This document shows, in pieces, positions 1 through 63,623 of a stretch of 64,000 nt of DNA (the first letter of the stretch is position 1; every line of letters begins with the position of its first letter). Position numbers and translations under genes: made by a program. The notes under the pieces are model-generated. The model saw only the letters and a program-made list of their open reading frames with translations. It was not told where the DNA came from and made no database searches. This stretch comes from Actinernus sp. WN-2022. Taxonomy: Eukaryota; Cnidaria; Anthozoa; Actiniaria; Actinernidae. Location of the stretch: positions 992,001-1,056,000 of the forward strand of contig JAOWCC010000091.1 in NCBI GenBank assembly GCA_030867875.1. Reading direction: 5' to 3'.

Positions 1-523
1 CTCACTCACTTCCACAGCATGTCCTCATAACTAATACACAGTAAATGTACATGCTGTTTGTATTCTGACTGAATGACATGTGTCGATCCATGTACTGCCA
101 CTGGCCCTTATGCAATAATACACCATAAACACCCGTAGATAAGCTGTACCTTTTCACCCAAAATATTCGTTCAAAATCGGGGGTGCGGCTTATCTACGGG
201 AACACCTAGAAAGGAGACCCAACATTAACATATATTTACATATCACGAACCTGTATGAAGCTTTTATTATGCGACGGTGCATATATTACAATCAGGTTCA
301 AATCGCATCCGATTGTGTAATATAGCAATTTAAGCATAAGCATTGAAAAAAAACACGCAATTTGAAAGAATTAAAGCAAAAACTCTTCAAGACCACCCTA
401 GACCTAATATATTAGAATTTCGTGAATATTTAAACGTGATTAAGCTTATTTACCTTCCAAAACATGCTGATTCGCAGCGCTTGTCAAAGCATGCATCTAA
501 ACAACCAGGAATCCTTCGCAATT
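1..523. other. Left part of the unit: non-coding, MITE-like
   Basis: I recognise no gene here. The stretch holds the 13-bp inverted repeat at 132-200 and a weaker one at about 275-323 (ATATTACAATC against GATTGTGTAATAT, with a 2-nt bulge). An A/T-rich tail with a length-variable A run near 347-354 follows. The plus-strand reading frame that crosses 343-645 is largely the antisense of the transposase fragment. The same content recurs at the start of every unit. Confidence 0.7.
132..200. repeat. 13-bp perfect inverted repeat (MITE-like hairpin)
   Basis: CCCGTAGATAAGC at 132-144 is the exact reverse complement of GCTTATCTACGGG at 188-200, with a 43-nt spacer that contains CGGGGGTGCGG. Termini containing a GCGGCTTAT-type word are common in pogo/Tigger-like DNA transposons and their MITEs, so this could be a fossil of that kind. 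I see no transposase for it and no clear target duplication. It is present in all 20 units. A structured RNA or a protein-binding palindrome remains possible. Confidence 0.5.
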
Positions 524-995
524 TTACACGTGGGAGATTGGCACTAGTTCATGAAAATCCAAGATGGCGGACCTCAGACCTACTCGTGCTAGAGAGGCTG
601 TACCATACAGCCTGGCAAAACGAGGGCCAAGTGGCAAATAAATAAAGTGAATAGTATCTCATTCTTTGTGCTTAGCTGGCTCATTCTTTGACTTGTACCT
701 CTCAGCACTACATTTGGCGCAAGAAGTCAGGTGGCTGTATGTATTTATAAGCGTTGCTATCACGAAACAGAATACAGTCTTTTGGACAGTAGTGATATGT
801 TACAGTATCAACAAGAAATGGCCGTATGAGAGCACACGCATCATCATAATTAGAGGGTAGAAGGTTGCTAGGAGGAAGTAATGACTTTTGAAGTTGAAGT
901 TGGTGGGAGAGGCTTTCTTTGCTAGTTTCTAGTTTACAGAAAACCATAGAAACTGCACTGCAACGGCTTGCATTAAAGTGACATTGCTGAGGCAA
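524..995 (-). pseudogene. EnSpm/CACTA transposase fragment, broken (unit 1)
   Basis: Reading down the minus strand from 995, the frame contains a leucine-rich stretch and then CPKDCILFR (codons at 788-762). At about 755-740 the frame changes; the next frame gives SCAKCSAERYK, then an in-frame TGA at 661-659, then PLGPRFARLYGTASLARV (about 634-581), and stops at 526-524. The order of a CPxDCxLFR box, a CxxC...ERY zinc knuckle and a PLxPRxARLxGTASL box is characteristic of EnSpm/CACTA (TNP2-type) transposases. The catalytic DDE core is not present in the unit. A further minus-strand frame at about 1190-1040 (ELCEQVLLSLY) may be the preceding exon. The fragment cannot encode an active enzyme. 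Confidence 0.7.
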
Positions 996-1334
996 AGTAG
1001 CAGGACTTATCTCTACAAGTGTGCTTCAAAAGTCACATTCATATTCTCGCATTGATTTGGCTGCGGCAGGCAGCAGTTCCCTTAGCCTGTTGAAGATAAA
1101 CATATAGAGACAGCAGCACCTGTTCGCACAACTCAAACCTTACATCAGTTTCAGAATCAGATAAATCCAATTCTGCACCTTGCACTTCAGAATAAGTCTG
1201 TAAGTTAAGTGAAATTAAGACTTAGCAGATTTCATTTAATCAGTAGTGAATATACACCTGAATTACCAAAATTGTATTGCTTAATTTATAAAAATGAAGA
1301 ATAAGGGTATAAATACCACAACTACTATAACCAC

Positions 1335-1359
1335 AGCTTGGAGGACATTTTGCCAAGCT
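1335..1359. repeat. 25-bp hairpin removed in short-form units
   Basis: AGCTTGG at 1335-1341 pairs with CCAAGCT at 1353-1359 around an 11-nt loop. The 39-bp deletion of units 4 and 12-15 corresponds to 1321-1359 and removes this hairpin exactly to its 3' end. Confidence 0.6.
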
Positions 1360-1498
1360 CATGATATTTTTAAAGTTGTAGGATTCGGTATAATTAGTGG
1401 TAAGCAAAAAAAAACCTTGATTCGTATCCCTCGCCCGCCACTAAAGTTTTTGTAGTAAAGCAACGTACGACTCACTCACTTTGATGAGAAGGAAATAC

Positions 1499-1562
1499 TT
1501 TGGCGGGGGGGAAATATTAGCCGGGACAAAAATTAGGCGGGAAGAAACTTGTTTGGTCGGGA
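1499..1562 (+). promoter_or_regulatory. Cluster of four GGCGGGA-type (E2F-like) boxes
   Basis: Four related words lie within 60 bp: TTTGGCGGGG (core at 1502), TTAGCCGGGA (1520), TTAGGCGGGA (1536) and TTTGGTCGGGA (1556), spaced 18, 16 and 20 bp. TTTGGCGGGAA-like words are the classical E2F/DP target, so this could be a cell-cycle-controlled element, but I infer that from the motif alone. No start codon or TATA box is clearly tied to it. In units 6-9 and 16-18 the second box is the better match GGCGGGA; in unit 19 it is damaged (GCCGCGA). Confidence 0.35.
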
Positions 1563-2189
1563 CAACTAGCCAACCGAAATCATTATTACCCTGAAGAATA
1601 AGGATACTTTAGTAAAAAAAAAAGACTGTGGACTCAGACGGGTAAAAAAGTAATTAACCCACACAGTGCACCATTATTGCTAGATCCTAATAGGCAAAAC
1701 ACGAAGTTGAAAAAAAACCAGTCAGAGGTTGATAACGTGGACAACTATTGCGAAGGGAAAGCGAATTAAGTATTAACCACTCCAAGTCTATGATAAAATA
1801 CACGAAGTCATGTAAACAGTTATTTTCATTTATTATATTTTTTAAATCAATTGTCAATTCCTGCAAAGAATGGAGAAAACGATGATTAGATGGATAAAGT
1901 AGAGTCTGTTTAGTATAGAGGGGAGCAAAATGGCTCTGTGGTTTCTCTACGCGTGTTTCTCTGATGAAATGTTCTTACGCTTTTAACGTCCTTAAACGGT
2001 AAGGAAGGGGGTAACGATCTAAGAAGGGTACTCATGGCTACGGTTAAGTCGGTAATATCTGTCGAATCGCTCCTAACTATGTAAACCAAACATGCATCAC
2101 GCTATTTCTTTATCCTGACTAAAGTGAAAGAGATACGTTTTTTACTCTAAGATTAAGAACAAGATTTACCGGTTATTTTGTGGTGTAAC

Positions 2190-2303
2190 ATGTCACTGAA
2201 AAAGAAGAAGAACGACGGATTAGAAATTTATAACAGGTGTGGTGTTAATGTATTTTGCGCTTACTGTGACCATTGCATTGATTTTATCTTACGTTCTTGT
2301 TAA
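2190..2303 (+). pseudogene. CGGBP1/BED-like zinc-finger remnant (unit 1)
   Basis: A 37-codon plus-strand frame begins with ATG and a lysine cluster (SLKKKK). It then reads VFCAYCDHCIDFILRS before a TAA at 2301. The next frame resumes with VKHHIGG and runs to 2478. FCxxC, then an acidic residue, R-S, and a histidine in the following frame matches the first half of the CGGBP1/BED-type DNA-binding fingers found in many transposases and domesticated proteins. The histidine falls in place if about 2 nt were lost (or 1 gained) at the break. I read it as a decayed transposon finger. It overlaps, on the opposite strand, the last exon of the RING gene, so one of the two readings may be accidental. Confidence 0.4.
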
Positions 2304-2732
2304 ACACCATATCGGCGGCCCGGTGGACCGCCACCAGAACGTTGGCGTCCATGCTATTCGCATGGACTATGACACACCCGTCCCCTGCCTTCCTGCAAGA
2401 ATGATTTATACGATTGATAAGTTATTGAGAATATCGCTAAGGGTTATAGTTGTGTGGTATTGCGTTTATGCATTGTAGCGAAATGAAGTAGAAAACCTAC
2501 CAGCAAGCCCCCACAGGGCAAAGTCCTGTGGCGAAGGCCAAGCGGACACACCCCTCACAGAATGTGTGCCCACAGTTACTCAATGTAAAGGTCGGCTCTG
2601 GTATCGACTTGCATAGTACACAAGAGTTAACGGCTGTATAGATAGGATGCAAGAAGAGAATATCTGTGAGGATACTGCACACAATCTTATAGTGTATCAT
2701 TAAACAGTTTGGACCTTACCTTGGTTCGACAT
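2284..2732 (-). CDS. Small three-exon RING-finger gene, possible E3 ligase (unit 1)
   Basis: Exon 1 (2732-2720) starts MSNQ and ends at CAAG|GTAAGG. After an 86-nt intron ending TATACAG, exon 2 (2633-2501) runs to GCTG|GTAGGT. After a 108-nt intron ending TTCTTGCAG, exon 3 (2392-2284) follows. Phases agree at both junctions and give 84 residues ending NKNVR; if AAC|GTAAGA at 2293 is used as a donor, the next good acceptor (CTTTTTCAG, about 2197) brings an immediate TGA. Exon 2 holds a C3HC4 RING: C9, C12, C25, H27, C30, C33, C43, C48. The last pair is spaced by four residues (CPVGAC), as in RING1 of RBR ligases, not the usual two. RING proteins bind E2 enzymes and transfer ubiquitin; that role is inferred. 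No membrane segment or signal peptide is visible. Exon 3 lies antisense to the zinc-finger remnant and is the least certain part. Confidence 0.6.
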
Positions 2733-2766
2733 GACGACGAATGAAGAAGGGTTTCACGTCCCTTCG

Positions 2767-2788
2767 TTTTATACTGAATTATTTGCAT
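2767..2788 (-). promoter_or_regulatory. Octamer plus TATA promoter of the RING gene (unit 1)
   Basis: On the minus strand a TATAAAA box (2773-2767) stands 35 nt before the RING start codon. A perfect octamer, ATGCAAAT (2788-2781 as read on the minus strand), lies 7 bp upstream of it. A start site about 30 nt below the TATA box would leave a 5' leader of roughly ten bases. Octamer plus TATA is the layout of histone H2B-type and other POU-factor promoters. Both motifs are unchanged in every unit, at the same distance from the ATG. Confidence 0.55.
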
Positions 2789-3267
2789 TGAATGCTCTTT
2801 TGTTCGGTTACTTTGAAGTAATTACAGTGAGTTATCACGATCACTCGAGATTCATTTCAACAATGGTTTCTGTGTTTCGAAATAATCCTTGAGGTCCTCT
2901 TTGGTAAACAAAATACAGTGTACCTTTATTAACGTGTCTACGAATCAAAAATTTAGTTGATCTTATTTGAAAACCGTTTCGAATCAAGGAAAAGTTTGCA
3001 AATATGTGGTACTAAGGAAAATACACATCACTGTGCTAATTATGTTGCCACGGAAACACTCTTGGTCCCATGTTTCATCCGTGTGGAAAAACAATTTTGT
3101 AATTTCTCCTTCCTCGAACACAATTTACTGCTGTGGGCACATCAGATGACTCCAAGTCCATCAGTTTTGTGAGAAAATACATCAGTTCTCTGACCCCTAC
3201 ACTGTTAAGCTACCCACTTATGAAGCCCTCTAGAAATCCATCCTGATCATACATGTATATTATAGTC
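2789..3267. other. Right part of the unit: upstream of the RING promoter, nothing recognised
   Basis: I recognise no gene. Two overlapping plus-strand frames of 60 and 71 codons (2957-3172) have no family resemblance I can see. A 43-codon frame without an ATG near the unit end (SFVRKYISSLTPTLLSYPL, about 3050-3240) is also unrecognised. This is the 5' flank of the RING gene and may hold its upstream control region. A run TAAACAAAAT / TAAAAAAAAT near 2904 varies between units. Confidence 0.5.
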
Positions 3268-3791
3268 CTCACTCACTTCCACAGCATGTCCTCATAACTA
3301 ATACACAGTAAATGTACATGCTGTTTGTATTCTGACTGAATGACATGTGTCGATCCATGTACTGCCACTGGCTCTTATGCAATAATACACCATAAACACC
3401 CGTAGATAAGCTGTACCTTTTCACCCAAAATATTCGTTCAAAATCGGGGGTGCGGCTTATCTACGGGAACACCTAGAAAGGAGACCCAACATTAACATAT
3501 ATTTACATATCACGAACCTGTATGAAGCTTTTATTATGCGACGGTGCATATATTACAATCAGGTTCAAATCGCATCCGATTGTGTAATATAGCAATTTAA
3601 GCATAAGCATTGAAAAAAAAAACGCAATTTGAAAGAATTAAAGCAAAAACTCTTCAAGACCCACCCTAGACCTAATATATTAGAATTTCGTGAATATTTA
3701 AACGTGATTAAGCTTATTTACCTTCCAAAACATGCTGATTCGCAGCGCTTGTCAAAGCATGCATCTAAACAACCAGGAATCCTTCGCAATT

Positions 3792-4263
3792 TTACACGTG
3801 GGAGATTGGCACTAGTTCATGAAAATCCAAGATGGCGGACCTCAGACCTACTCGTGCTAGAGAGGCTGTACCATACAGCCTGGCAAAACGAGGGCCAAGT
3901 GGCAAATAAATAAAGTGAATAGTATCTCATTCTTTGTGCTTAGCTGGCTCATTCTTTGACTTGTACCTCTCAGCACTACATTTGGCGCAAGAAGTCAGGT
4001 GGCTGTATGTATTTATAAGCGTTGCTATCACGAAACAGAATACAGTCTTTTGGACAGTAGTGATATGTTACAGTATCAACAAGAAATGGCCGAATGAGAG
4101 CACACGCATCATCATAATTAGAGGGTAGAAGGTTGCTAGGAGGAAGTAATGACTTTTGAAGTTGAAGTTGGTGGGAGAGGCTTTCTTTGCTAGTTTCTAG
4201 TTTACAGAAAACCATAGAAACTGCACTGCAACGGCTTGCATTAAAGTGACATTGCTGAGGCAA
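3792..4263 (-). pseudogene. EnSpm/CACTA transposase fragment (unit 2)
   Basis: Same frameshift and TGA as unit 1. One synonymous Ile codon change (ATA to ATT), shared with unit 5. The SINE lies 155 bp upstream on the transposase strand. Confidence 0.7.
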
Positions 4264-4418
4264 AGTAGCAGGACTTATCTCTACAAGTGTGCTTCAAAAG
4301 TCACATTCATATTCTCGCATTGATTTGGCTGCGGCAGGCAGCAGTTCCCTTAGCCTGTTGAAGATAAAAATATAGAGACAGCAGCACCTGTTCGCACAAC
4401 TCAAACCTTACATCAGTT

Positions 4419-4801
4419 ACCGCCTCACTGGTTAGCTCAGTTGGTAGAGCACGGTCTAGAGTGCGGGAGGTCGGGGGTTCGAACCCGGCCGCGTCCTTGG
4501 GCAGGGACATTTATAAGTCGTTGGCCTTGTCTCCTTCTACTTCTAATCAGTATTTGAAGGGGACGTGAAAGAACCTGTTGTACTACTCGAAAAAGAGAAG
4601 GGGATTGTCACCCGGTACAACAGCCTGGCCATTGCACTAACCACACACTCAACATTGTAAACTGCGTGGCTGCCATTGGCGCCGTAAAAGCAGTCCGATA
4701 CAGATTCACTGACGGGATATGTCAGTAAAATGTAAAGCGCCATGAGACTGTGGTGATATGGCGCTATATAAATATGGCCTATTATTATTATTATTATTAT
4801 T
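4419..4801 (+). mobile_element. tRNA-derived SINE with (ATT)n tail
   Basis: This 383-bp segment is present only in unit 2 and is flanked by a 7-bp target duplication, ATCAGTT (4412-4418 and 4802-4808). Its head is tRNA-like with RNA polymerase III control boxes: A box TAGCTCAGTTGG (4433-4444) and B box GGTTCGAACCC (4476-4486). The body ends in GGCGCTATATAAATAT followed by (ATT)n at about 4780-4801. That tail type is widespread in SINEs of marine invertebrates and is thought to recruit a partner LINE reverse transcriptase. The duplication and tail show retrotransposition into this one copy after the array had formed. Confidence 0.9.
4421..4493 (+). ncRNA. tRNA-like SINE head (pol III promoter)
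   Basis: The sequence folds in outline like a tRNA, with D-arm and T-arm words, but is the 5' module of the SINE and not a free tRNA gene: the acceptor ends do not pair cleanly and it continues directly into the SINE body. Confidence 0.7.
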
Positions 4802-5847
4802 ATCAGTTTCAGAATCAGATAAATCCAATTCTGCACCTTGCACTTCAGAATAAGTCTGTAAGTTAAGTGAAATTAAGACTTAGCAGATTTCATTTAATCA
4901 GTAGTGAATATACACCTGAATTACCAAAATTGTATTGCTTAATTTATAAAAATGAAGAATAAGGGTATAAATACCACAACTACTATAACCACAGCTTGGA
5001 GGACATTTTGCCAAGCTCATGATATTTTTAAAGTTGTAGGATTCGGTATAATTAGTGGTAAGCAAAAAAAAAACTTGATTCGTATCCCTCGCCCGCCACT
5101 AAAGTTTTTGTAGTAAAGCAACGTACGACTCACTCACTTTGATGAGAAGGAAAGACTTTGGCGGGGGGAAAATATTAGCCGGGACAAAAATTAGGCGGGA
5201 AGAAACTTGTTTGGTCGGGACAACTAGCCAACCGAAATCATTATTACCCTGAAGAATAAGGATACTTTAGTAAAAAAAAAAGACTGTGGACTCAGACGGG
5301 TAAAAAAGTAATTAACCCACACAGTGCACCATTATTGCTAGATCCTAATAGGCAAAACACGAAGTTGAAAAAAAACCAGTCAGAGGTTGATAACGTGGAC
5401 AACTATTGCGAAGGGAAAGCGAATTAAGTATTAACCACTCCAAGTCTATGATAAAATACACGAAGTCATGTAAACAGTTATTTTCATTTATTATATTTTT
5501 TAAATCAATTGTCAATTCCTGCAAAGAATGGAGAAAACGATGATTAGATGGATAAAGTAGAGTCTGTTTAGTATAGAGGGGAGCAAAATGGCTCTGTGGT
5601 TTCTCTACGCGTGTTTCTCTGATGAAATGTTCTTACGCTTTTAACGTCCTTAAACGGTAAGGAAGGGGGTAACGATCTAAGAAGGGTACTCATGGCTACG
5701 GTTAAGTCGGTAATATCTGTCGAATCGCTCCTAACTATGTAAACCAAACATGCATCACGCTATTTCTTTATCCTGACTAAAGTGAAAGAGATACGTTTTT
5801 TACTCTAAGATTAAGAACAAGATTTACCGGTTATTTTGTGGTGTAAC

Positions 5848-5961
5848 ATGTCACTGAAAAAGAAGAAGAACGACGGATTAGAAATTTATAACAAGTATGG
5901 TGTTAATGTATTTTGCGCTTACTGTGACCATTGCATTGATTTTATCTTACGTTCTTGTTAA
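5848..5961 (+). pseudogene. Zinc-finger remnant (unit 2)
   Basis: Arg16 codon is AAG (Lys), shared with unit 5; same break as unit 1. Confidence 0.4.
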
Positions 5962-6390
5962 ACACCATATCGGCGGCCCGGTGGACCGCCACCAGAACGT
6001 TGGCGTCCATGCTATTCGCATGGACTATGACACACCCGTCCCCTGCCTTCCTGCAAGAATGATTTATACGATTGATAAGTTATTGAGAATATCGCTAAGG
6101 GTTATAGTTGTGTGGTATTGCGTTTATGCATTGTAGCGAAATGAAGTAGAAAACCTACCAGCAAGCCCCCACAGGGCAAAGTCCTGTGGCGAAGGCCAAG
6201 CGGACACACCCCTCACAGAATGTGTGCCCACAGTTACTCAATGTAAAGGTCGGCTCTGGTATCGACTTGCATAGTACACAAGAGTTAACGGCTGTATAGA
6301 TAGGATGCAAGAAGAGAATATCTGTGAGGATACTGCACACAATCTTATAGTGTATCATTAAACAGTTTGGACCTTACCTTGGTTCGACAT
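5942..6390 (-). CDS. RING-finger gene (unit 2)
   Basis: Exons 6390-6378, 6291-6159 and 6050-5942. Coding sequence the same as unit 1. Promoter boxes present. Confidence 0.6.
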
Positions 6391-7449
6391 GACGACGAAT
6401 GAAGAAGGGTTTCACGTCCCTTCGTTTTATACTGAATTATTTGCATTGAATGCTCTTTTGTTCGGTTACTTTGAAGTAATTACAGTGAGTTATCACGATC
6501 ACTCGAGATTCATTTCAACAATGGTTTCTGTGTTTCGAAATAATCCTTGAGGTCCTCTTTGGTAAACAAAATACAGTGTACCTTTATTAACGTGTCTACG
6601 AATCAAAAATTTAGTTGATCTTATTTGAAAACCGTTTCGAATCAAGGAAAAGTTTGCAAATATGTGGTACTAAGGAAAATACACATCACTGTGCTAATTA
6701 TGTTGCCACGGAAACACTCTTGGTCCCATGTTTCATCCGTGTGGAAAAACAATTTTGTAATTTCTCCTTCCTCGAACACAATTTACTGCTGTGGGCACAT
6801 CAGATGACTCCAAGTCCATCAGTTTTGTGAGAAAATACATCAGTTCTCAGACCCCTACACTGTTAAGCTACCCACTTATGAAGCCCTCTAGAAATCCATC
6901 CTGATCATACATGTATATTATAGTCCTCACTCACTTCCACAGCATGTCCTCATAACTAATACACAGTAAATGTACATGCTGTTTGTATTCTGACTGAATG
7001 ACATGTGTCGATCCATGTACTGCCACTGGCTCTTATGCAATAATACACCATAAACACCCGTAGATAAGCTGTACCTTTTCACCCAAAATATTCGTTCAAA
7101 ATCGGGGGTGCGGCTTATCTACGGGAACACCTAGAAAGGAGACCCAACATTAACATATATTTACATATCACGAACCTGTATGAAGCTTTTATTATGCGAC
7201 GGTGCATATATTACAATCAGGTTCAAATCGCATCCGATTGTGTAATATAGCAATTTAAGCATAAGCATTGAAAAAAAACACGCAATTTGAAAGAATTAAA
7301 GCAAAAACTCTTCAAGACCCACCCTAGACCTAATATATTAGAATTTCGTGAATATTTAAACGTGATTAAGCTTATTTACCTTCCAAAACATGCTGATTCG
7401 CAGCGCTTGTCAAAGCATGCATCTAAACAACCAGGAATCCTTCGCAATT

Positions 7450-7921
7450 TTACACGTGGGAGATTGGCACTAGTTCATGAAAATCCAAGATGGCGGACCT
7501 CAGACCTACTCGTGCTAGAGAGGCTGTACCATACAGCCTGGCAAAACGAGGGCCAAGTGGCAAATAAATAAAGTGAATAGTATCTCATTCTTTGTGCTTA
7601 GCTGGCTCATTCTTTGACTTGTACCTCTCAGCACTACATTTGGCGCAAGAAGTCAGGTGGCTGTATGTATTTATAAGCGTTGCTATCACGAAACAGAATA
7701 CAGTCTTTTGGACAGTAGTGATATGTTACAGTATCAACAAGAAATGGCCGTATGAGAGCACACGCATCATCATAATTAGAGGGTAGAAGGTTGCTAGGAG
7801 GAAGTAATGACTTTTGAAGTTGAAGTTGGTGGGAGAGGCTTTCTTTGCTAGTTTCTAGTTTACAGAAAACCATAGAAACTGCACTGCAACGGCTTGCATT
7901 AAAGTGACATTGCTGAGGCAA
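7450..7921 (-). pseudogene. EnSpm/CACTA transposase fragment (unit 3)
   Basis: Identical in content to unit 1, with the same frameshift and TGA. Confidence 0.7.
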
Positions 7922-9115
7922 AGTAGCAGGACTTATCTCTACAAGTGTGCTTCAAAAGTCACATTCATATTCTCGCATTGATTTGGCTGCGGCAGGCAGC
8001 AGTTCCCTTAGCCTGTTGAAGATAAAAATATAGAGACAGCAGCACCTGTTCGCACAACTCAAACCTTACATCAGTTTCAGAATCAGATAAATCCAATTCT
8101 GCACCTTGCACTTCAGAATAAGTCTGTAAGTTAAGTGAAATTAAGACTTAGCAGATTTCATTTAATCAGTAGTGAATATACACCTGAATTACCAAAATTG
8201 TATTGCTTAATTTATAAAAATGAAGAATAAGGGTATAAATACCACAACTACTATAACCACAGCTTGGAGGACATTTTGCCAAGCTCATGATATTTTTAAA
8301 GTTGTAGGATTCGGTATAATTAGTGGTAAGCAAAAAAAAACCTTGATTCGTATCCCTCGCCCGCCACTAAAGTTTTTGTAGTAAAGCAACGTACGACTCA
8401 CTCACTTTGATGAGAAGGAAAGACTTTGGCGGGGGGAAAATATTAGCCGGGACAAAAATTAGGCGGGAAGAAACTTGTTTGGTCGGGACAACTAGCCAAC
8501 CGAAATCATTATTACCCTGAAGAATAAGGATACTTTAGTAAAAAAAAAAGACTGTGGACTCAGACGGGTAAAAAAGTAATTAACCCACACAGTGCACCAT
8601 TATTGCTAGATCCTAATAGGCAAAACACGAAGTTGAAAAAAAACCAGTCAGAGGTTGATAACGTGGACAACTATTGCGAAGGGAAAGCGAATTAAGTATT
8701 AACCACTCCAAGTCTATGATAAAATACACGAAGTCATGTAAACAGTTATTTTCATTTATTATATTTTTTAAATCAATTGTCAATTCCTGCAAAGAATGGA
8801 GAAAACGATGATTAGATGGATAAAGTAGAGTCTGTTTAGTATAGAGGGGAGCAAAATGGCTCTGTGGTTTCTCTACGCGTGTTTCTCTGATGAAATGTTC
8901 TTACGCTTTTAACGTCCTTAAACGGTAAGGAAGGGGGTAACGATCTAAGAAGGGTACTCATGGCTACGGTTAAGTCGGTAATATCTGTCGAATCGCTCCT
9001 AACTATGTAAACCAAACATGCATCACGCTATTTCTTTATCCTGACTAAAGTGAAAGAGATACGTTTTTTACTCTAAGATTAAGAACAAGATTTACCGGTT
9101 ATTTTGTGGTGTAAC

Positions 9116-9229
9116 ATGTCACTGAAAAAGAAGAAGAACGACGGATTAGAAATTTATAACAGGTATGGTGTTAATGTATTTTGCGCTTACTGTGACCATT
9201 GCATTGATTTTATCTTACGTTCTTGTTAA
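9116..9229 (+). pseudogene. Zinc-finger remnant (unit 3)
   Basis: Codon 17 is TAT (Tyr), the majority form; same break. Confidence 0.4.
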
Positions 9230-9658
9230 ACACCATATCGGCGGCCCGGTGGACCGCCACCAGAACGTTGGCGTCCATGCTATTCGCATGGACTATGACA
9301 CACCCGTCCCCTGCCTTCCTGCAAGAATGATTTATACGATTGATAAGTTATTGAGAATATCGCTAAGGGTTATAGTTGTGTGGTATTGCGTTTATGCATT
9401 GTAGCGAAATGAAGTAGAAAACCTACCAGCAAGCCCCCACAGGGCAAAGTCCTGTGGCGAAGGCCAAGCGGACACACCCCTCACAGAATGTGTGCCCACA
9501 GTTACTCAATGTAAAGGTCGGCTCTGGTATCGACTTGCATAGTACACAAGAGTTAACGGCTGTATAGATAGGATGCAAGAAGAGAATATCTGTGAGGATA
9601 CTGCACACAATCTTATAGTGTATCATTAAACAGTTTGGACCTTACCTTGGTTCGACAT
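9210..9658 (-). CDS. RING-finger gene (unit 3)
   Basis: Exons 9658-9646, 9559-9427 and 9318-9210. Coding sequence the same as unit 1. Confidence 0.6.
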
Positions 9659-10717
9659 GACGACGAATGAAGAAGGGTTTCACGTCCCTTCGTTTTATAC
9701 TGAATTATTTGCATTGAATGCTCTTTTGTTCGGTTACTTTGAAGTAATTACAGTGAGTTATCACGATCACTCGAGATTCATTTCAACAATGGTTTCTGTG
9801 TTTCGAAATAATCCTTGAGGTCCTCTTTGGTAAAAAAAATACAGTGTACCTTTATTAACGTGTCTACGAATCAAAAATTTAGTTGATCTTATTTGAAAAC
9901 CGTTTCGAATCAAGGAAAAGTTTGCAAATATGTGGTACTAAGGAAAATACACATCACTGTGCTAATTATGTTGCCACGGAAACACTCTTGGTCCCATGTT
10001 TCATCCGTGTGGAAAAACAATTTTGTAATTTCTCCTTCCTCGAACACAATTTACTGCTGTGGGCACATCAGATGACTCCAAGTCCATCAGTTTTGTGAGA
10101 AAATACATCAGTTCTCAGACCCCTACACTGTTAAGCTACCCACTTATGAAGCCCTCTAGAAATCCATCCTGATCATACATGTATATTATAGTCCTCACTC
10201 ACTTCCACAGCATGTCCTCATAACTAATACACAGTAAATGTACATGCTGTTTGTATTCTGACTGAATGACATGTGTCGATCCATGTACTGCCACTGGCTC
10301 TTATGCAATAATACACCATAAACACCCGTAGATAAGCTGTACCTTTTCACCCAAAATATTCGTTCAAAATCGGGGGTGCGGCTTATCTACGGGAACACCT
10401 AGAAAGGAGACCCAACATTAACATATATTTACATATCACGAACCTGTATGAAGCTTTTATTATGCGACGGTGCATATATTACAATCAGGTTCAAATCGCA
10501 TCCGATTGTGTAATATAGCAATTTAAGCATAAGCATTGAAAAAAAACACGCAATTTGAAAGAATTAAAGCAAAAACTCTTCAAGACCCACCCTAGACCTA
10601 ATATATTAGAATTTCGTGAATATTTAAACGTGATTAAGCTTATTTACCTTCCAAAACATGCTGATTCGCAGCGCTTGTCAAAGCATGCATCTAAACAACC
10701 AGGAATCCTTCGCAATT

Positions 10718-11189
10718 TTACACGTGGGAGATTGGCACTAGTTCATGAAAATCCAAGATGGCGGACCTCAGACCTACTCGTGCTAGAGAGGCTGTACCAT
10801 ACAGCCTGGCAAAACGAGGGCCAAGTGGCAAATAAATAAAGTGAATAGTATCTCATTCTTTGTGCTTAGCTGGCTCATTCTTTGACTTGTACCTCTCAGC
10901 ACTACATTTGGCGCAAGAAGTCAGGTGGCTGTATGTATTTATAAGCGTTGCTATCACGAAACAGAATACAGTCTTTTGGACAGTAGTGATATGTTACAGT
11001 ATCAACAAGAAATGGCCGTATGAGAGCACACGCATCATCATAATTAGAGGGTAGAAGGTTGCTAGGAGGAAGTAATGACTTTTGAAGTTGAAGTTGGTGG
11101 GAGAGGCTTTCTTTGCTAGTTTCTAGTTTACAGAAAACCATAGAAACTGCACTGCAACGGCTTGCATTAAAGTGACATTGCTGCGGCAA
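10718..11189 (-). pseudogene. EnSpm/CACTA transposase fragment (unit 4)
   Basis: As unit 1, with CCG for CCT in the second codon (CTGCGGC on the plus strand). Confidence 0.7.
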
Positions 11190-12344
11190 AGTAGCAGGAC
11201 TTATCTCTACAAGTGTGCTTCAAAAGTCACATTCATATTCTCGCATTGATTTGGCTGCGGCAGGCAGCAGTTCCCTTAGTCTGTTGAAGATAAAAATATA
11301 GAGACAGCAGCACCTGTTCGCACAACTCAAACCTTACATCAGTTTCAGAATCAGATAAATCCAATTCTGCACCTTGCACTTCAGAATAAGTCTGTAAGTT
11401 AAGTGAAATTAAGACTTAGCACATTTCATTTAATCAGTAGTGAATATACACCTGAATTACCAAAATTGTATTGCTTAATTTATAAAAATGAAGAATAAGG
11501 GTATAAATACCACACATGATATTTTTAAAGTTGTAGGATTCGGTATAATTAGTGGTAAGCAAAAAAAAACCTTGATTCGTATCCCTCGCCCGCCACTAAA
11601 GTTTTTGTAGTAAAGCAACGTACGACTCACTCACTTTGATGAGAAGGAAATACTTTGGCGGGGGGAAAATATTAGCCGGGACAAAAATTAGGCGGGAAGA
11701 AACTTGTTTGGTCGGGACAACTAGCCAACCGAAATCATTATTACCCTGAAGAATAAGGATACTTTAGTAAAAAAAAAAGACTGTGGACTCAGACGGGTAA
11801 AAAAGTAATTAACCCACACAGTGCACCATTATTGCTAGATCCTAATAGGCAAAACACGAAGTTGAAAAAAAACCAGTCAGAGGTTGATAACGTGGACAAC
11901 TATTGCGAAGGGAAAGCGAATTAAGTATTAACCACTCCAAGTCTATGATAAAATACACGAAGTCATGTAAACAGTTATTTTCATTTATTATATTTTTTAA
12001 ATCAATTGTCAATTCCTGCAAAGAATGGAGAAAACGATGATTAGATGGATAAAGTAGAGTCTGTTTAGTATAGAGGGGAGCAAAATGGCTCTGTGGTTTC
12101 TCTACGCGTGTTTCTCTGATGAAATGTTCTTACGCTTTTAACGTCCTTAAACGGTAAGGAAGGGGGTAACGATCTAAGAAGGGTACTCATGGCTACGGTT
12201 AAGTCGGTAATATCTGTCGAATCGCTCCTAACTATGTAAACCAAACATGCATCACGCTATTTCTTTATCCTGACTAAAGTGAAAGAGATACGTTTTTTAC
12301 TCTAAGATTAAGAACAAGATTTACCGGTTATTTTGTGGTGTAAC

Positions 12345-12458
12345 ATGTCACTGAAAAAGAAGAAGAACGACGGATTAGAAATTTATAACAGGTATGGTGT
12401 TAATGTATTTTGCGCTTACTGTGACCATTGCATTGATTTTATCTTACGTTCTTGTTAA
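12345..12458 (+). pseudogene. Zinc-finger remnant (unit 4)
   Basis: Majority form, same break. Confidence 0.4.
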
Positions 12459-12887
12459 ACACCATATCGGCGGCCCGGTGGACCGCCACCAGAACGTTGG
12501 CGTCCATGCTATTCGCATGGACTATGACACACCCGTCCCCTGCCTTCCTGCAAGAATGATTTATACGATTGATAAGTTATTGAGAATATCGCTAAGGGTT
12601 ATAGTTGTGTGGTATTGCGTTTATGCATTGTAGCGAAATGAAGTAGAAAACCTACCAGCAAGCCCCCACAGGGCAAAGTCCTGTGGCGAAGGCCAAGCGG
12701 ACACACCCCTCACAGAATGTGTGCCCACAGTTACTCAATGTAAAGGTCGGCTCTGGTATCGACTTGCATAGTACACAAGAGTTAACGGCTGTATAGATAG
12801 GATGCAAGAAGAGAATATCTGTGAGGATACTGCACACAATCTTATAGTGTATCATTAAACAGTTTGGACCTTACCTTGGTTCGACAT
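12439..12887 (-). CDS. RING-finger gene (unit 4)
   Basis: Exons 12887-12875, 12788-12656 and 12547-12439. The short-form deletion lies about 0.9 kb away on the 3' side and does not touch the gene. Confidence 0.6.
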
Positions 12888-13946
12888 GACGACGAATGAA
12901 GAAGGGTTTCACGTCCCTTCGTTTTATACTGAATTATTTGCATTGAATGCTCTTTTGTTCGGTTACTTTGAAGTAATTACAGTGAGTTATCACGATCACT
13001 CGAGATTCATTTCAACAATGGTTTCTGTGTTTCGAAATAATCCTTGAGGTCCTCTTTGGTAAACAAAATACAGTGTACCTTTATTAACGTGTCTACGAAT
13101 CAAAAATTTAGTTGATCTTATTTGAAAACCGTTTCGAATCAAGGAAAAGTTTGCAAATATGTGGTACTAAGGAAAATACACATCACTGTGCTAATTATGT
13201 TGCCACGGAAACACTCTTGGTCCCATGTTTCATCCGTGTGGAAAAACAATTTTGTAATTTCTCCTTCCTCGAACACAATTTACTGCTGTGGGCACATCAG
13301 ATGACTCCAAGTCCATCAGTTTTGTGAGAAAATACATCAGTTCTCTGACCCCTACACTGTTAAGCTACCCACTTATGAAGCCCTCTAGAAATCCATCCTG
13401 ATCATACATGTATATTATAGTCCTCACTCACTTCCACAGCATGTCCTCATAACTAATACACAGTAAATGTACATGCTGTTTGTATTCTGACTGAATGACA
13501 TGTGTCGATCCATGTACTGCCACTGGCTCTTATGCAATAATACACCATAAACACCCGTAGATAAGCTGTACCTTTTCACCCAAAATATTCGTTCAAAATC
13601 GGGGGTGCGGCTTATCTACGGGAACACCTAGAAAGGAGACCCAACATTAACATATATTTACATATCACGAACCTGTATGAAGCTTTTATTATGCGACGGT
13701 GCATATATTACAATCAGGTTCAAATCGCATCCGATTGTGTAATATAGCAATTTAAGCATAATCATTGAAAAAAAACACGCAATTTGAAAGAATTAAAGCA
13801 AAAACTCTTCAAGACCCACCCTAGACCTAATATATTAGAATTTCGTGAATATTTAAACGTGATTAAGCTTATTTACCTTCCAAAACATGCTGATTCGCAG
13901 CGCTTGTCAAAGCATGCATCTAAACAACCAGGAATCCTTCGCAATT

Positions 13947-14418
13947 TTACACGTGGGAGATTGGCACTAGTTCATGAAAATCCAAGATGGCGGACCTCAG
14001 ACCTACTCGTGCTAGAGAGGCTGTACCATACAGCCTGGCAAAACGAGGGCCAAGTGGCAAATAAATAAAGTGAATAGTATCTCATTCTTTGTGCTTAGCT
14101 GGCTCATTCTTTGACTTGTACCTCTCAGCACTACATTTGGCGCAAGAAGTCAGGTGGCTGTATGTATTTATAAGCGTTGCTATCACGAAACAGAATACAG
14201 TCTTTTGGACAGTAGTGATATGTTACAGTATCAACAAGAAATGGCCGAATGAGAGCACACGCATCATCATAATTAGAGGGTAGAAGGTTGCTAGGAGGAA
14301 GTAATGACTTTTGAAGTTGAAGTTGGTGGGAGAGGCTTTCTTTGCTAGTTTCTAGTTTACAGAAAACCATAGAAACTGCACTGCAACGGCTTGCATTAAA
14401 GTGACATTGCTGAGGCAA
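13947..14418 (-). pseudogene. EnSpm/CACTA transposase fragment (unit 5)
   Basis: As unit 2, including the shared synonymous Ile change. Confidence 0.7.
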
Positions 14419-15612
14419 AGTAGCAGGACTTATCTCTACAAGTGTGCTTCAAAAGTCACATTCATATTCTCGCATTGATTTGGCTGCGGCAGGCAGCAGT
14501 TCCCTTAGCCTGTTGAAGATAAAAATATAGAGACAGCAGCACCTGTTCGCACAACTCAAACCTTACATCAGTTTCAGAATCAGATAAATCCAATTCTGCA
14601 CCTTGCACTTCAGAATAAGTCTGTAAGTTAAGTGAAATTAAGACTTAGCAGATTTCATTTAATCAGTAGTGAATATACACCTGAATTACCAAAATTGTAT
14701 TGCTTAATTTATAAAAATGAAGAATAAGGGTATAAATACCACAACTACTATAACCACAGCTTGGAGGACATTTTGCCAAGCTCATGATATTTTTAAAGTT
14801 GTAGGATTCGGTATAATTAGTGGTAAGCAAAAAAAAAACTTGATTCGTATCCCTCGCCCGCCACTAAAGTTTTTGTAGTAAAGCAACGTACGACTCACTC
14901 ACTTTGATGAGAAGGAAAGACTTTGGCGGGGGGAAAATATTAGCCGGGACAAAAATTAGGCGGGAAGAAACTTGTTTGGTCGGGACAACTAGCCAACCGA
15001 AATCATTATTACCCTGAAGAATAAGGATACTTTAGTAAAAAAAAAAGACTGTGGACTCAGACGGGTAAAAAAGTAATTAACCCACACAGTGCACCATTAT
15101 TGCTAGATCCTAATAGGCAAAACACGAAGTTGAAAAAAAACCAGTCAGAGGTTGATAACGTGGACAACTATTGCGAAGGGAAAGCGAATTAAGTATTAAC
15201 CACTCCAAGTCTATGATAAAATACACGAAGTCATGTAAACAGTTATTTTCATTTATTATATTTTTTAAATCAATTGTCAATTCCTGCAAAGAATGGAGAA
15301 AACGATGATTAGATGGATAAAGTAGAGTCTGTTTAGTATAGAGGGGAGCAAAATGGCTCTGTGGTTTCTCTACGCGTGTTTCTCTGATGAAATGTTCTTA
15401 CGCTTTTAACGTCCTTAAACGGTAAGGAAGGGGGTAACGATCTAAGAAGGGTACTCATGGCTACGGTTAAGTCGGTAATATCTGTCGAATCGCTCCTAAC
15501 TATGTAAACCAAACATGCATCACGCTATTTCTTTATCCTGACTAAAGTGAAAGAGATACGTTTTTTACTCTAAGATTAAGAACAAGATTTACCGGTTATT
15601 TTGTGGTGTAAC

Positions 15613-15726
15613 ATGTCACTGAAAAAGAAGAAGAACGACGGATTAGAAATTTATAACAAGTATGGTGTTAATGTATTTTGCGCTTACTGTGACCATTGCA
15701 TTGATTTTATCTTACGTTCTTGTTAA
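15613..15726 (+). pseudogene. Zinc-finger remnant (unit 5)
   Basis: As unit 2 (Lys16). Confidence 0.4.
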
Positions 15727-16155
15727 ACACCATATCGGCGGCCCGGTGGACCGCCACCAGAACGTTGGCGTCCATGCTATTCGCATGGACTATGACACAC
15801 CCGTCCCCTGCCTTCCTGCAAGAATGATTTATACGATTGATAAGTTATTGAGAATATCGCTAAGGGTTATAGTTGTGTGGTATTGCGTTTATGCATTGTA
15901 GCGAAATGAAGTAGAAAACCTACCAGCAAGCCCCCACAGGGCAAAGTCCTGTGGCGAAGGCCAAGCGGACACACCCCTCACAGAATGTGTGCCCACAGTT
16001 ACTCAATGTAAAGGTCGGCTCTGGTATCGACTTGCATAGTACACAAGAGTTAACGGCTGTATAGATAGGATGCAAGAAGAGAATATCTGTGAGGATACTG
16101 CACACAATCTTATAGTGTATCATTAAACAGTTTGGACCTTACCTTGGTTCGACAT
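15707..16155 (-). CDS. RING-finger gene (unit 5)
   Basis: Exons 16155-16143, 16056-15924 and 15815-15707. Coding sequence the same as unit 1. Confidence 0.6.
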
Positions 16156-17214
16156 GACGACGAATGAAGAAGGGTTTCACGTCCCTTCGTTTTATACTGA
16201 ATTATTTGCATTGAATGCTCTTTTGTTCGGTTACTTTGAAGTAATTACAGTGAGTTATCACGATCACTCGAGATTCATTTCAACAATGGTTTCTGTGTTT
16301 CGAAATAATCCTTGAGGTCCTCTTTGGTAAAAAAAATACAGTGTACCTTTATTAACGTGTCTACGAATCAAAAATTTAGTTGATCTTATTTGAAAACCGT
16401 TTCGAATCAAGGAAAAGTTTGCAAATATGTGGTACTAAGGAAAATACACATCACTGTGCTAATTATGTTGCCACGGAAACACTCTTGGTCCCATGTTTCA
16501 TCCGTGTGGAAAAACAATTTTGTAATTTCTCCTTCCTCGAACACAATTTACTGCTGTGGGCACATCAGATGACTCCAAGTCCATCAGTTTTGTGAGAAAA
16601 TACATCAGTTCTCAGACCCCTACACTGTTAAGCTACCCACTTATGAAGCCCTCTAGAAATCCATCCTGATCATACATGTATATTATAGTCCTCACTCACT
16701 TCCACAGCATGTCCTCATAACTAATACACAGTAAATGTACATGCTGTTTGTATTCTGACTGAATGACATGTGTCGATCCATGTACTGCCACTGGCTCTTA
16801 TGCAATAATACACCATAAACACCCGTAGATAAGCTGTACCTTTTCACCCAAAATATTCGTTCAAAATCGGGGGTGCGGCTTATCTACGGGAACACCTAGA
16901 AAGGAGACCCAACATTAACATATATTTACATATCACGAACCTGTATGAAGCTTTTATTATGCGACGGTGCATATATTACAATCAGGTTCAAATCGCATCC
17001 GATTGTGTAATATAGCAATTTAAGCATAAGCATTGAAAAAAAACACGCAATTTGAAAGAATTAAAGCAAAAACTCTTCAAGACCCACCCTAGACCTAATA
17101 TATTAGAATTTCGTGAATATTTAAACGTGATTAAGCTTATTTACCTTCCAAAACATGCTGATTCGCAGCGCTTGTCAAAGCATGCATCTAAACAACCAGG
17201 AATCCTTCGCAATT

Positions 17215-17686
17215 TTACACGTGGGAGATTGGCACTAGTTCATGAAAATCCAAGATGGCGGACCTCAGACCTACTCGTGCTAGAGAGGCTGTACCATACA
17301 GCCTGGCAAAACGAGGGCCAAGTGGCAAATAAATAAAGTGAATAGTATCTCATTCTTTGTGCTTAGCTGGCTCATTCTTTGACTTGTACCTCTCAGCACT
17401 ACATTTGGCGCAAGAAGTCAGGTGGCTGTATGTATTTATAAGCGTTGCTATCACGAAACAGAATACAGTCTTTTGGACAGTAGTGATATGTTACAGTATC
17501 AACAAGAAATGGCCGTATGAGAGCACACGCATCATCATAATTAGAGGGTAGAAGGTTGCTAGGAGGAAGTAATGACTTTTGAAGTTGAAGTTGGTGGGAG
17601 AGGCTTTCTTTGCTAGTTTCTAGTTTACAGAAAACCATAGAAACTGCACTGCAACGGCTTGCATTAAAGTGACATTGCTGCGGCAA
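17215..17686 (-). pseudogene. EnSpm/CACTA transposase fragment (unit 6)
   Basis: As unit 4 (CCG second codon). Frameshift and TGA unchanged. Confidence 0.7.
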
Positions 17687-18880
17687 AGTAGCAGGACTTA
17701 TCTCTACAAGTGTGCTTCAAAAGTCACATTCATATTCTCGCATTGATTTGGCTGCGGCAGGCAGCAATTCCCTTAGCCTGTTGAAGATAAAAATATAGAG
17801 ACAGCAGCACCTGTTCGCACAACTCAAACCTTACATCAGTTTCAGAATCAGATAAATCCAATTCTGCACCTTGCACTTCAGAATAAGTCTGTAAGTTAAG
17901 TGAAATTAAGACTTAGCAGATTTCATTTAATCAGTAGTGAATATACACCTGAATTACCAAAATTGTATTGCTTAATTTATAAAAATGAAGAATAAGGGTA
18001 TAAATACCACAACTACTATAACCACAGCTTGGAGGACATTTTGCCAAGCTCATGATATTTTTAAAGTTGTAGGATTCGGTATAATTAGTGGTAAGCAAAA
18101 AAAAACCTTGATTCGTATCCCTCGCCCGCCACTAAAGTTTTTGTAGTAAAGCAACGTACGACTCACTCACTTTGATGAGAAGGAAAGACTTTGGCGGGGG
18201 AAAAATATTAGGCGGGACAAAAATTAGGCGGGAAGAAACTTGTTTGGTCGGGACAACTAGCCAACCCAAATCATTATTACCCTGAGGAATAAGGATACTT
18301 TAGTAAAAAAAAAAGACTGTGGACTCAGACGGGTAAAAACGTAATTAACCCACACAGTGCACCATTATTGCTAGATCCTAATAGGCAAAACACGAAGTTG
18401 AAAAAAAACCAGTCAGAGGTTGATAACGTGGACAACTATTGCGAAGGGAAAGCGAATTAAGTATTAACCACTCCAAGTCTATGATAAAATACACGAAGTC
18501 ATGTAAACAGTTATTTTCATTTATTATATTTTTTAAATCAATTGTCAATTCCTGCAAAGAATGGAGAAAACGATGATTAGATGGATAAAGTAGAGTCTGT
18601 TTAGTATAGAGGGGAGCAAAATGGCTCTGTGGTTTCTCTACGCGTGTTTCTCTGATGAAATGTTCTTACGCTTTTAACGTCCTTAAACGGTAAGGAAGGG
18701 GGTAACGATCTAAGAAGGGTACTCATGGCTACGGTTAAGTCGGTAATATCTGTCGAATCGCTCCTAACTATGTAAACCAAACATGCATCACGCTATTTCT
18801 TTATCCTGACTAAAGTGAAAGAGATACGTTTTTTACTCTAAGATTAAGAACAAGATTTACCGGTTATTTTGTGGTGTAAC

Positions 18881-18994
18881 ATGTCACTGAAAAAGAAGAA
18901 GAACGACGGATGAGAAATTTATAACAGGTATGGTGTTAATGTATTTTGCGCTTACTGTGACCATTGCATTGATTTTATCTTACGTTCTTGTTAA
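18881..18994 (+). pseudogene. Zinc-finger remnant with extra nonsense codon (unit 6)
   Basis: TTA to TGA at 18911-18913 stops the frame at codon 11, before the cysteines. A frame free to collect stops fits a non-functional remnant. Confidence 0.4.
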
Positions 18995-19423
18995 ACACCA
19001 TATCGGCGGCCCGGTGGACCGCCACCAGAACGTTGGCGTCCATGCTATTCGCATGGACTATGACACACCCGTCCCCTGCCTTCCTGCAAGAATGATTTAT
19101 ACGATTGATAAGTTATTGGGAATATCGCTAAGGGTTATAGTTGTGTGGTATTGCGTTTATGCATTGTAGCGAAATGAAGTAGAAAACCTACCAGCAAGCC
19201 CCCACAGGGCAAAGTCCTGTGGCGAAGGCCAAGCGGACACACCCCTCACAGAATGTGTGCCCACAGTTACTCAATGTAAAGGTCGGCTCTGGTATCGACT
19301 TGCATAGTACACAAGAGTTAACGGCTGTATAGATAGGATGCAAGAAGAGAATATCTGTGAGGATACTGCACACAATCTTATAGTGTATCATTAAACAGTT
19401 TGGACCTTACCTTGGTTCGACAT
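18975..19423 (-). CDS. RING-finger gene (unit 6)
   Basis: Exons 19423-19411, 19324-19192 and 19083-18975. From this unit on, intron 2 often carries the TTATTGGGAAT variant (plus strand) instead of TTATTGAGAAT. Confidence 0.6.
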
Positions 19424-20482
19424 GACGACGAATGAAGAAGGGTTTCACGTCCCTTCGTTTTATACTGAATTATTTGCATTGAATGCTCTTTTGTTCGGTT
19501 ACTTTGAAGTAATTACAGTAAGTTATCACGATCACTCGAGATTCATTTCAACAATGGTTTCTGTGTTTCGAAATAATCCTTGAGGTCCTCTTTGGTAAAA
19601 AAAATACAGTGTACCCTTATTAACGTGTCTACGAATCAAAAATTTAGTTGATCTTATTTGAAAACCGTTTCGAATCAAGGAAAAGTTTGCAAATATGTGG
19701 TACTAAGGAAAATACACATCACTGTGCTAATTATGTTGCCACGGAAACACTCTTGGTCCCATGTTTCATCCGTGTGGAAAAACAATTTTGTAATTTCTCC
19801 TTCCTCGAACACAATTTACTGCTGTGGGCACATCAGATGACTCCAAGTCCATCAGTTTTGTGAGAAAATACATCAGTTCTCTGACCCCTACACTGTTAAG
19901 CTACCCACTTATGAAGCCCTCTAGAAATCCATCCTGATCATACATGTATATTATAGTCCTCACTCACTTCCACAGCATGTCCTCATAACTAATACACAGT
20001 AAATGTACATGCTGTTTGTATTCTGACTGAATGACATGTGTCGATCCATGTACTGCCACTGGCCCTTATGCAATAATACACCATAAACACCCGTAGATAA
20101 GCTGTACCTTTTCACCCAAAATATTCGTTCAAAATCGGGGGTGCGGCTTATCTACGGGAACACCTAGAAAGGAGACCCAACATTAACATATATTTACATA
20201 TCACGAACCTGTATGAAGCTTTTATTATGCGACGGTGCATATATTACAATCAGGTTCAAATCGCATCCGATTGTGTAATATAGCAATTTAAGCATAAGCA
20301 TTGAAAAAAAAAACGCAATTTGAAAGAATTAAAGCAAAAACTCTTCAAGACCCACCCTAGACCTAATATATTAGAATTTCGTGAATATTTAAACGTGATT
20401 AAGCTTATTTACCTTCCAAAACATGCTGATTCGCAGCGCTTGTCAAAGCATGCATCTAAACAACCAGGAATCCTTCGCAATT

Positions 20483-22149: not shown

Positions 22150-22263
22150 ATGTCACTGAAAAAGAAGAAGAACGACGGATTAGAAATTTATAACAGGTAT
22201 GGTGTTAATGTATTTTGCGCTTACTGTGACCATTGCATTGATTTTATCTTACGTTCTTGTTAA
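22150..22263 (+). pseudogene. Zinc-finger remnant (unit 7)
   Basis: Majority form, same break. Confidence 0.4.
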
Positions 22264-63570: not shown

Positions 63571-63623
63571 CGCACCTCACACCCTTCCCAAGAATAACAA
63601 GATATTGAGGTGGGGTACTTGTT

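What the first reader, a model, noticed from the sequence alone, without database searches (positions are those of the whole stretch)
2284..2732. Hidden three-exon RING gene multiplied 19-fold
Single-frame reading shows only a 67-codon frame, but exon joining at consensus GT-AG sites gives a continuous 84-residue protein with ATG, C3HC4 RING and agreeing phases at both junctions. Many identical copies of a ubiquitin-ligase-like gene could be a dosage or conflict system. I know of no described family with this exact layout.
Basis: partly seen in the sequence, partly recalled or inferred. Interest (0 to 1): 0.8.

Follow-up and report, generated by a model that had tools for sequence, protein, structure and literature searches.

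The report
Polinton RING gene caught in arrays
A small gene that appears to be spliced and to encode a RING (ubiquitin-ligase-like) protein sits near one end of virus-like Polinton elements scattered through this 1.39-Gb genome, and one such end with its flank has been copied into long tandem arrays, 19 copies of which fill the window.

Summary
The gene model stands. It lies on the minus strand of a ~3.27-kb unit present 19 times in the window; three exons (13, 133, 109 nt) give 84 residues, identical in 17 of 19 units, with a zf-C3HC4 match above Pfam's cutoff. It is not a lone host gene: unit segment 1321-2884 is the left end of a Maverick/Polinton. Ten dispersed loci show that end; at least seven loci have a GRF zinc-finger frame next inward, and the one locus read further has type-B DNA polymerase and rve/chromo integrase. 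Distant paralogues (39-44% identical RING exon) keep most exon boundaries, so splicing is well supported, though no RNA was seen and each distant copy has some damage. The array looks passive: it repeats an element-flank junction, and a sister array carries a frameshifted RING. Unexpected: between element clades, RING synonymous sites differ by 0.29-0.36, introns by 0.03-0.07, flanks by 0.03-0.04, neighbouring genes' synonymous sites by 0.04-0.09, while amino acids are constrained; some pairs and patches do not fit this. Best reading: a Polinton accessory E3-like protein acting on host proteins. E3 genes in Polinton-like viruses are already reported; a spliced one in arrays I did not find.

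The parts
2720..2732 (-). RING gene, unit 1, exon 1 (13 nt)
   Evidence: 13-nt first exon followed by GT in 5 of 6 distant loci printed
2634..2719 (-). intron 1, 86 nt, GTAAGG...ATACAG, phase 1
   Evidence: donor and acceptor kept in 9 of 9 dispersed copies
2501..2633 (-). exon 2, 133 nt, the RING motif
   Evidence: zf-C3HC4 29.1 bits, cutoff 21
2393..2500 (-). intron 2, 108 nt, GTAGGT...TTGCAG, phase 2
   Evidence: donor and acceptor kept in 9 of 9 dispersed copies
2284..2392 (-). exon 3, 109 nt, C-terminal tail and stop
   Evidence: a similar tail is recognisable by eye in L038-L040
1321..2884 (.). left-terminal segment of a Maverick/Polinton inside unit 1; outer end ACTACTATAACCACAG at 1321, inner breakpoint 2884
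   Evidence: homologous to 9 dispersed copies with unrelated left flanks
1..62565 (.). tandem array of ~3.27-kb units (19 units and a 280-bp partial one)
4419..4801 (+). insert in unit 2 only, with a tRNA-like head and ATT tail (SINE-like by eye)
   Evidence: sequence; gap between the two matches
5942..6390 (-). RING gene, unit 2
9210..9658 (-). RING gene, unit 3
12439..12887 (-). RING gene, unit 4
15707..16155 (-). RING gene, unit 5
18975..19423 (-). RING gene, unit 6
22244..22692 (-). RING gene, unit 7
25513..25961 (-). RING gene, unit 8
28781..29229 (-). RING gene, unit 9
32043..32491 (-). RING gene, unit 10
35311..35759 (-). RING gene, unit 11
38540..38988 (-). RING gene, unit 12
41769..42217 (-). 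RING gene, unit 13
44998..45446 (-). RING gene, unit 14
48227..48675 (-). RING gene, unit 15
51495..51943 (-). RING gene, unit 16 (V83A)
54763..55211 (-). RING gene, unit 17 (V56D)
58035..58483 (-). RING gene, unit 18
61302..61750 (-). RING gene, unit 19
62731..63570 (-). packaging-ATPase-like gene (Pox_A32, 25.4 bits, cutoff 22.8) of another Polinton family that abuts the array at 62566
   Evidence: an rve integrase lies further out in L012

Best explanation
The gene is a spliced accessory gene of Maverick/Polinton virus-like elements, lying within about 1.5 kb of one element end and transcribed towards that end, opposite to the GRF-PolB-integrase frames. Shown by sequence: gene anatomy, RING match, residence in dispersed elements next to Polinton genes, most intron positions kept in distant paralogues, constraint on the amino acids. 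Inferred: the protein binds zinc, recruits an E2 and, perhaps through its C-terminal tail, marks or sequesters host proteins that would restrict the element, as RING E3s of other viruses do. The window's array is secondary: a left element end plus its flank, cut at unit position 2884, was tandemly amplified and homogenised, carrying the gene along as a passenger; whether the array copies are transcribed is open.
For: Exon structure kept in 19 of 19 units. Pfam zf-C3HC4 above cutoff. Genome search: three array contigs plus dispersed paralogues, the list running from 98% down to 40% identity. Nine dispersed copies share one outer end with unrelated left flanks; six of them (L024, L026, L028-L031) stay alike for more than 3 kb. 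In L030/L033, inward of the RING gene: GRF zinc finger 1.1e-9, DNA_pol_B_2 2.6e-49, rve 9.6e-13 plus chromo 6e-7; the GRF frame is also present in L024, L026, L028, L029, L041, L042. Distant paralogues L039 and L038 have GRF- and PolB-like DNA beside the RING. Exon boundaries in distant paralogues. dN/dS about 0.18-0.24 for the array gene versus intact copies L026, L028, L029, L030. L041, on a contig that also bears an array, holds a longer Polinton left end whose outside flank matches unit 698-1073 and 1188-1320 at 97-99%. The sister array copies read (L025, L045) share the 2884 junction but have a 1-nt shift in the RING exon.
Against: No RNA or protein evidence. Of 24 dispersed or sister-array copies aligned, 9 are intact under the model and 15 broken; one of the 9, L051, has lost cysteine 43; 9 more loci of the 33 compared were left out as partial or rearranged. 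Element homology stops early in L023, L027 and L032, so those are fragments. The second terminus, target duplication, capsid and protease genes were not found for the RING-bearing element. The vertebrate survey reports no introns in intact Mavericks (PMC8097293, passage). The last cysteine pair has unusual spacing. The large protein search found no relative. A 400-bp variant-free run over exons 1-2 in the array (chance 0.023 under random placement) speaks mildly against 'purely passive'.
Confidence: 0.7

Rival explanations
1. The array is a working dosage system of host or element: dozens of intact RING copies are transcribed together and the copy number is selected.
For: 19 of 19 window copies keep splice sites and stop; the longest variant-free run of the unit (400 bp, 2429-2828) covers exons 1-2, chance about 0.023 under random placement of 61 variants; at least 24-37 copies on each of three contigs.
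Against: Exons vary at 3 of 255 sites, introns at 1 of 194, the flank part at 27 of 1703: no exon-specific protection; the three exon variants make two residue changes. The sister array copies read carry a shifted RING frame. The repeated unit includes 1.7 kb of flank with no frame of 120 codons or more; smaller or spliced genes there were not sought.
Confidence: 0.15
2. About the exon excess: it comes from short gene conversion with diverged RING copies whose introns are too different to convert, leaving old exon patches inside young elements.
For: Divergence is patchy along the element, with lesser noncoding peaks at L030 positions about 551, 835-915, 2291 and 2451-2530, and one inside the GRF frame at 2881; L051 and L061 look mosaic in exons by eye.
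Against: The distant family is not the donor: at 26 exon-2 sites where L041 and L030 differ, its members match L041 at 8-10 and L030 at 6-8. L024 is intermediate (15 and 10), which suggests stepwise change.
Confidence: 0.4
3. About the exon excess: it comes from selection or mutation acting on the mature mRNA, for instance escape from small RNAs that target spliced transcripts.
For: Synonymous divergence 0.29-0.36 against introns 0.03-0.07 and flanks 0.03-0.04 in five between-clade pairs; total exon excess also in two of three distant-family pairs.
Against: Neighbouring GRF and PolB coding stretches do not show it (synonymous 0.04-0.09); nor do the stretches just up- and downstream, which should hold the untranslated regions; codons 34-48 are nearly invariant even at silent sites; noncoding patches exist; the pairs L041-L024 (Fisher 0.07 against introns) and array-L041 (1.0) and L038-L039 (0.38) show little or no excess.
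Confidence: 0.15
4. The spliced frame is a chance join in noncoding satellite DNA.
For: 144 alternative joins of the stretch stay open.
Against: Pfam match, recurring exon boundaries in distant paralogues, amino-acid constraint.
Confidence: 0.03

Closest known systems
Maverick/Polinton elements of animals, e.g. vertebrate Mavericks (PMC8097293; section 7 read, other passages seen)
   Different: Here a two-intron RING gene is an accessory; the survey found no introns in intact elements. The outer end reads ACTACT inward, the commonest published motif AGTAGT.
Predicted E3 ubiquitin ligases of Polinton-like viruses (PMC7805220; two passages seen)
   Same: Predicted E3 ligase carried by Polinton-like viruses: 61 viruses in that data set and one earlier report.
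   Different: Those come from aquatic ecosystems; their sequences were not compared here; splicing and arrays are not mentioned in the passages seen.
Group I introns in short genes of some protist Polinton-like viruses (PMC12220804; passages)
   Same: An intron inside a short gene of a Polinton-like virus.
   Different: Those are self-splicing introns of 309-376 bp; ours are short GT-AG introns, and no Rfam family matched the window at gathering score.
RING proteins with solved structures, such as MAT1, RING2, BRE1, TRIM25
   Same: Weak sequence matches within residues 8-68 (best E 0.00063).
   Different: Only 84 residues, no further known domain, last cysteine pair C-x4-C.
Macrosatellites that carry whole genes (recalled as a kind, no call)
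   Same: Kilobase unit with a complete gene, homogenised copies.
   Different: The unit is a Polinton end plus its flank.

Membership tests
RING (zf-C3HC4) | Pfam match above gathering score | tested here: met
   PF00097 29.1 bits, cutoff 21; the 13 other models listed (nearly all RING types) score under their cutoffs
RING (zf-C3HC4) | eight ligands with RING spacing | tested here: inconclusive
   C9-x2-C12-x12-C25-x-H27-x2-C30-x2-C33-x9-C43-x4-C48; last pair x4 (sequence; usual spacing recalled)
RING E3 ligase | E2 binding and ubiquitin transfer | not testable with these tools
   needs protein assay
Maverick/Polinton | protein-primed type DNA polymerase B | tested here: met
   DNA_pol_B_2 2.6e-49 in L033, the same locus as a RING copy; the protein-primed character itself is recalled for this Pfam family
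Maverick/Polinton | retrovirus-like integrase | tested here: met
   rve 9.6e-13 with chromo 6e-7
Maverick/Polinton | A32-like packaging ATPase | tested here: inconclusive
   found in the other Polinton family beside the array; that part of the RING-bearing element was not fetched
Maverick/Polinton | capsid proteins and protease | tested here: inconclusive
   no telling Pfam match for the candidate frames sent: one from L033, three from L012
Maverick/Polinton | terminal inverted repeats | tested here: inconclusive
   distant-family copies L034/L035 lie inverted, 11 kb apart, 99.5% alike over 2.4 kb; of the RING-bearing element one end only was read; the pattern search did not complete
Maverick/Polinton | 6-bp target-site duplication | not tested
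   no right end was fetched

The most novel reading that the evidence does not exclude
An element-borne RING gene whose mature-mRNA exons, far more than its introns, flanks or neighbouring genes, are driven to change even at silent sites while the protein is held: diversification aimed at the spliced message, as in escape from host small RNAs, with arrays of the gene as a possible source or target of those RNAs.
Probability: 0.12. Interest if true: 0.85.

Novelty: new variant of a known kind. Interest (0 to 1): 0.5.

Why it matters
It points to a virus-like element of a large eukaryotic genome that carries a spliced, constrained ubiquitin-ligase-like gene, and shows how one end of such an element can seed gene-bearing tandem arrays. 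The contrast between fast-changing exons and slow introns gives a testable case of conflict or conversion acting on a mobile element's accessory gene, to be followed with small-RNA and RNA-seq data.

Tried and rejected
Plus-strand reading: rejected, the gene is on the minus strand. Structural RNA gene array: no Rfam match at gathering score in the window. Chance splicing: unlikely (see rivals). Exon donor from the distant RING family: not supported. The idea that the excess is confined strictly to exons was weakened by other peaks and by pairs without excess. That the array lies inside a Polinton: not supported; the far-side flanks L044 (C1676) and L020 (C945) give no tblastx match at 1e-6 to the two Polinton stretches held. 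Protein search of 5.8 billion sequences: no candidate. Structure prediction was not tried, since the spliced protein is not read letter for letter from DNA. The organism was not identified. Papers: seven searches showed no paper on a spliced RING gene in Polintons or on such arrays; word finds in PMC11071308 and PMC10120064 gave no RING hit; the adintovirus paper looked up by DOI is not held.

Full report
The observation. Each ~3.27-kb unit of the window's array (19 units over 1-62565 with a 280-bp partial unit at the end) holds on its minus strand a gene of three exons, 13, 133 and 109 nt, with introns of 86 and 108 nt. Joined, they give an 84-residue protein, identical in 17 of 19 units; units 16 and 17 have one residue change each. 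Joining alone proves little, since 144 GT-AG joins of this stretch stay open. The Pfam zf-C3HC4 match (29.1 bits, cutoff 21) and the comparative evidence below count for more. Weak matches to solved RING proteins (MAT1, RING2, BRE1, TRIM25; best E 0.00063) agree; the same list also holds chance-like hits such as profilin. The last cysteine pair is C-x4-C, which departs from the usual spacing as I recall it, but is shared by the distant loci L034-L037, L039 and L040.

The surroundings. The genome (1.39 Gb, 1772 contigs) holds at least 94 near-identical exon-2 copies in arrays on three contigs, C1676 (37), C1161 (33) and C945 (24), by my count, whose counts are lower bounds. Flanks on the window's side agree between the three contigs at 99.3-100% over kilobases, so they are probably alleles or duplicates of one locus. 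Beyond the arrays the same search lists dispersed paralogues from 98% down to 40% identity. I fetched ten loci at 4 kb, one 8-kb neighbour and further loci of 1.4-6 kb.

What it belongs to. Unit positions 1321-2884 align with nine of the ten 4-kb loci from a common outer end, ACTACTATAACCACAG, whose left flanks are unrelated; the tenth, L025, is a second array. Six of the nine stay alike for more than 3 kb; in L023, L027 and L032 homology stops earlier. In the one locus read further (L030 plus L033), inward of the RING gene, lie a GRF zinc finger, a type-B DNA polymerase (DNA_pol_B_2, 2.6e-49) and an rve integrase with chromodomain: part of the core of a Maverick/Polinton. The GRF frame is also present in L024, L026, L028, L029, L041 and L042. 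The array's right neighbour from 62566 is another Polinton family, with an A32-like ATPase and an rve integrase. Distant paralogues (seven loci L034-L040; RING exon 39-44% identical) lie in related elements: L039 and L038 have GRF- and PolB-like DNA beside the gene, and L034/L035 are inverted copies 99.5% alike over 2.4 kb, 11 kb apart.

Splicing. Six distant loci were printed around exon 2. The first exon is 13 nt and followed by GT in 5 of 6 (L038 has 12 nt). The exon-2 acceptor AG stands in 5 of 6 (L040 lacks it). The exon-2 donor GT after the TG of the split codon stands in 5 of 6 (L039 reads AT). L038-L040 have an acceptor and a recognisable tail for exon 3, whereas L034, L036 and L037 run into other element DNA there. 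So every distant copy has some damage or change, but the boundaries and phases recur, at about 40% protein identity. That is the best evidence, short of RNA, that the introns are real. In the main family, 9 of 9 dispersed copies keep the four splice dinucleotides. The vertebrate Maverick survey reports no introns in intact elements (PMC8097293, passage); some protist Polinton-like viruses have self-splicing group I introns (PMC12220804, passages).

Selection. Thirty-three loci were compared with the gene; nine partial or rearranged ones (L043, L052, L055-L059, L063, L064) were left out. Of the 24 aligned, 9 are intact under the model and 15 broken; one of the 9, L051, has lost cysteine 43. Between the array gene and the intact copies L026, L028, L029 and L030, dN is 0.09-0.095 and dS 0.40-0.50, so the protein is constrained. 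The surprise is the contrast with neighbouring DNA: for L041 versus L030, synonymous sites differ at 19 of 56, introns at 14 of 194, flanks at 15 of 421 (Fisher 2e-6 and 5e-11); for L024 versus L030, 18 of 55.8, 6 of 194 and 12 of 421. Five between-clade pairs (L041-L030, L041-L026, array-L030, L024-L030, L041-L046) lie at 0.29-0.36. Synonymous divergence between clades is 0.06-0.09 in the GRF frame and 0.04-0.09 in the PolB start. Sites share ancestry and pairs overlap, so these are not separate tests. The excess sits in exon 2 codons 6-33 and in exon 3; codons 34-48 hardly vary, even at silent sites.

Against a clean story: lesser peaks exist in noncoding stretches and one in the GRF frame; the array gene and L041 show no excess, L041-L024 is weak (0.13; Fisher 0.07 against introns); in the distant family two of three pairs show a total exon excess (58 of 227 exon sites versus 58 of 399 noncoding; 56 of 226 versus 51 of 369; Fisher about 0.0009 each) and one does not (17 of 226 versus 38 of 385), and those copies are damaged. 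Patchy conversion is my first explanation, though the one donor tested fails.

The array. L041, on contig C1161 about 200 kb beyond that contig's last listed array copy, holds a longer Polinton left end (RING to GRF) whose outside flank matches unit 698-1073 and 1188-1320. The unit therefore looks like a Polinton-flank junction, cut at 2884 and tandemly copied. A second array at C635:145.68 Mb shares the 2884 junction, but in the copies read (L025, L045) the RING exon has lost one base. Amplification there did not need an intact RING. Inside the window array the exons hold 3 variable sites of 255, introns 1 of 194, other Polinton part 30 of 1115, flank part 27 of 1703; a 400-bp variant-free run over exons 1-2 has chance about 0.02 under random placement. 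This leaves some room for selection on the array copies.

How it works, in my judgement. The element's RING protein probably acts as a small E3 that removes or modifies host proteins; its targets are unknown and the catalytic step is inferred from the family. [quoted passage not shown] The array is most likely a passenger expansion.

Novelty. Polintons with accessory genes and E3-bearing Polinton-like viruses are known. A two-intron RING gene in such Polintons, its arrays and the exon excess I did not find in seven paper searches, which cover only open-licence papers. I call it a new variant of a known kind.

Noticed in passing
window 4419-4801: Unit 2 alone carries a ~383-bp insert with a tRNA-like head and ATT-repeat tail; SINE-like by eye, with ATCAGTT-like letters at both edges.
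   Followed up: no
window 1321-1359 and the same place in units 4 and 12-15: Five of 19 units lack about the first 39 nt of the Polinton end; units 12-15 are neighbours, which points to unequal exchange.
   Followed up: partly
window 62566-64000 and L012: A second Polinton family abuts the array, with an ATPase, an integrase and unidentified frames on the minus strand.
   Followed up: partly
L027, left flank of the element end: By eye, the flank resembles the second Polinton family's DNA (window about 63809-63890), so one Polinton may have inserted in another.
   Followed up: no
L034, L036, L037 downstream of exon 2: Behind the exon-2 donor these copies run into element DNA that elsewhere lies beyond exon 3; exon 3 seems lost.
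   Followed up: partly
exon 2 codons 34-48, element clades: A ~45-nt stretch nearly invariant even at silent sites beside the hypervariable patch.
   Followed up: partly
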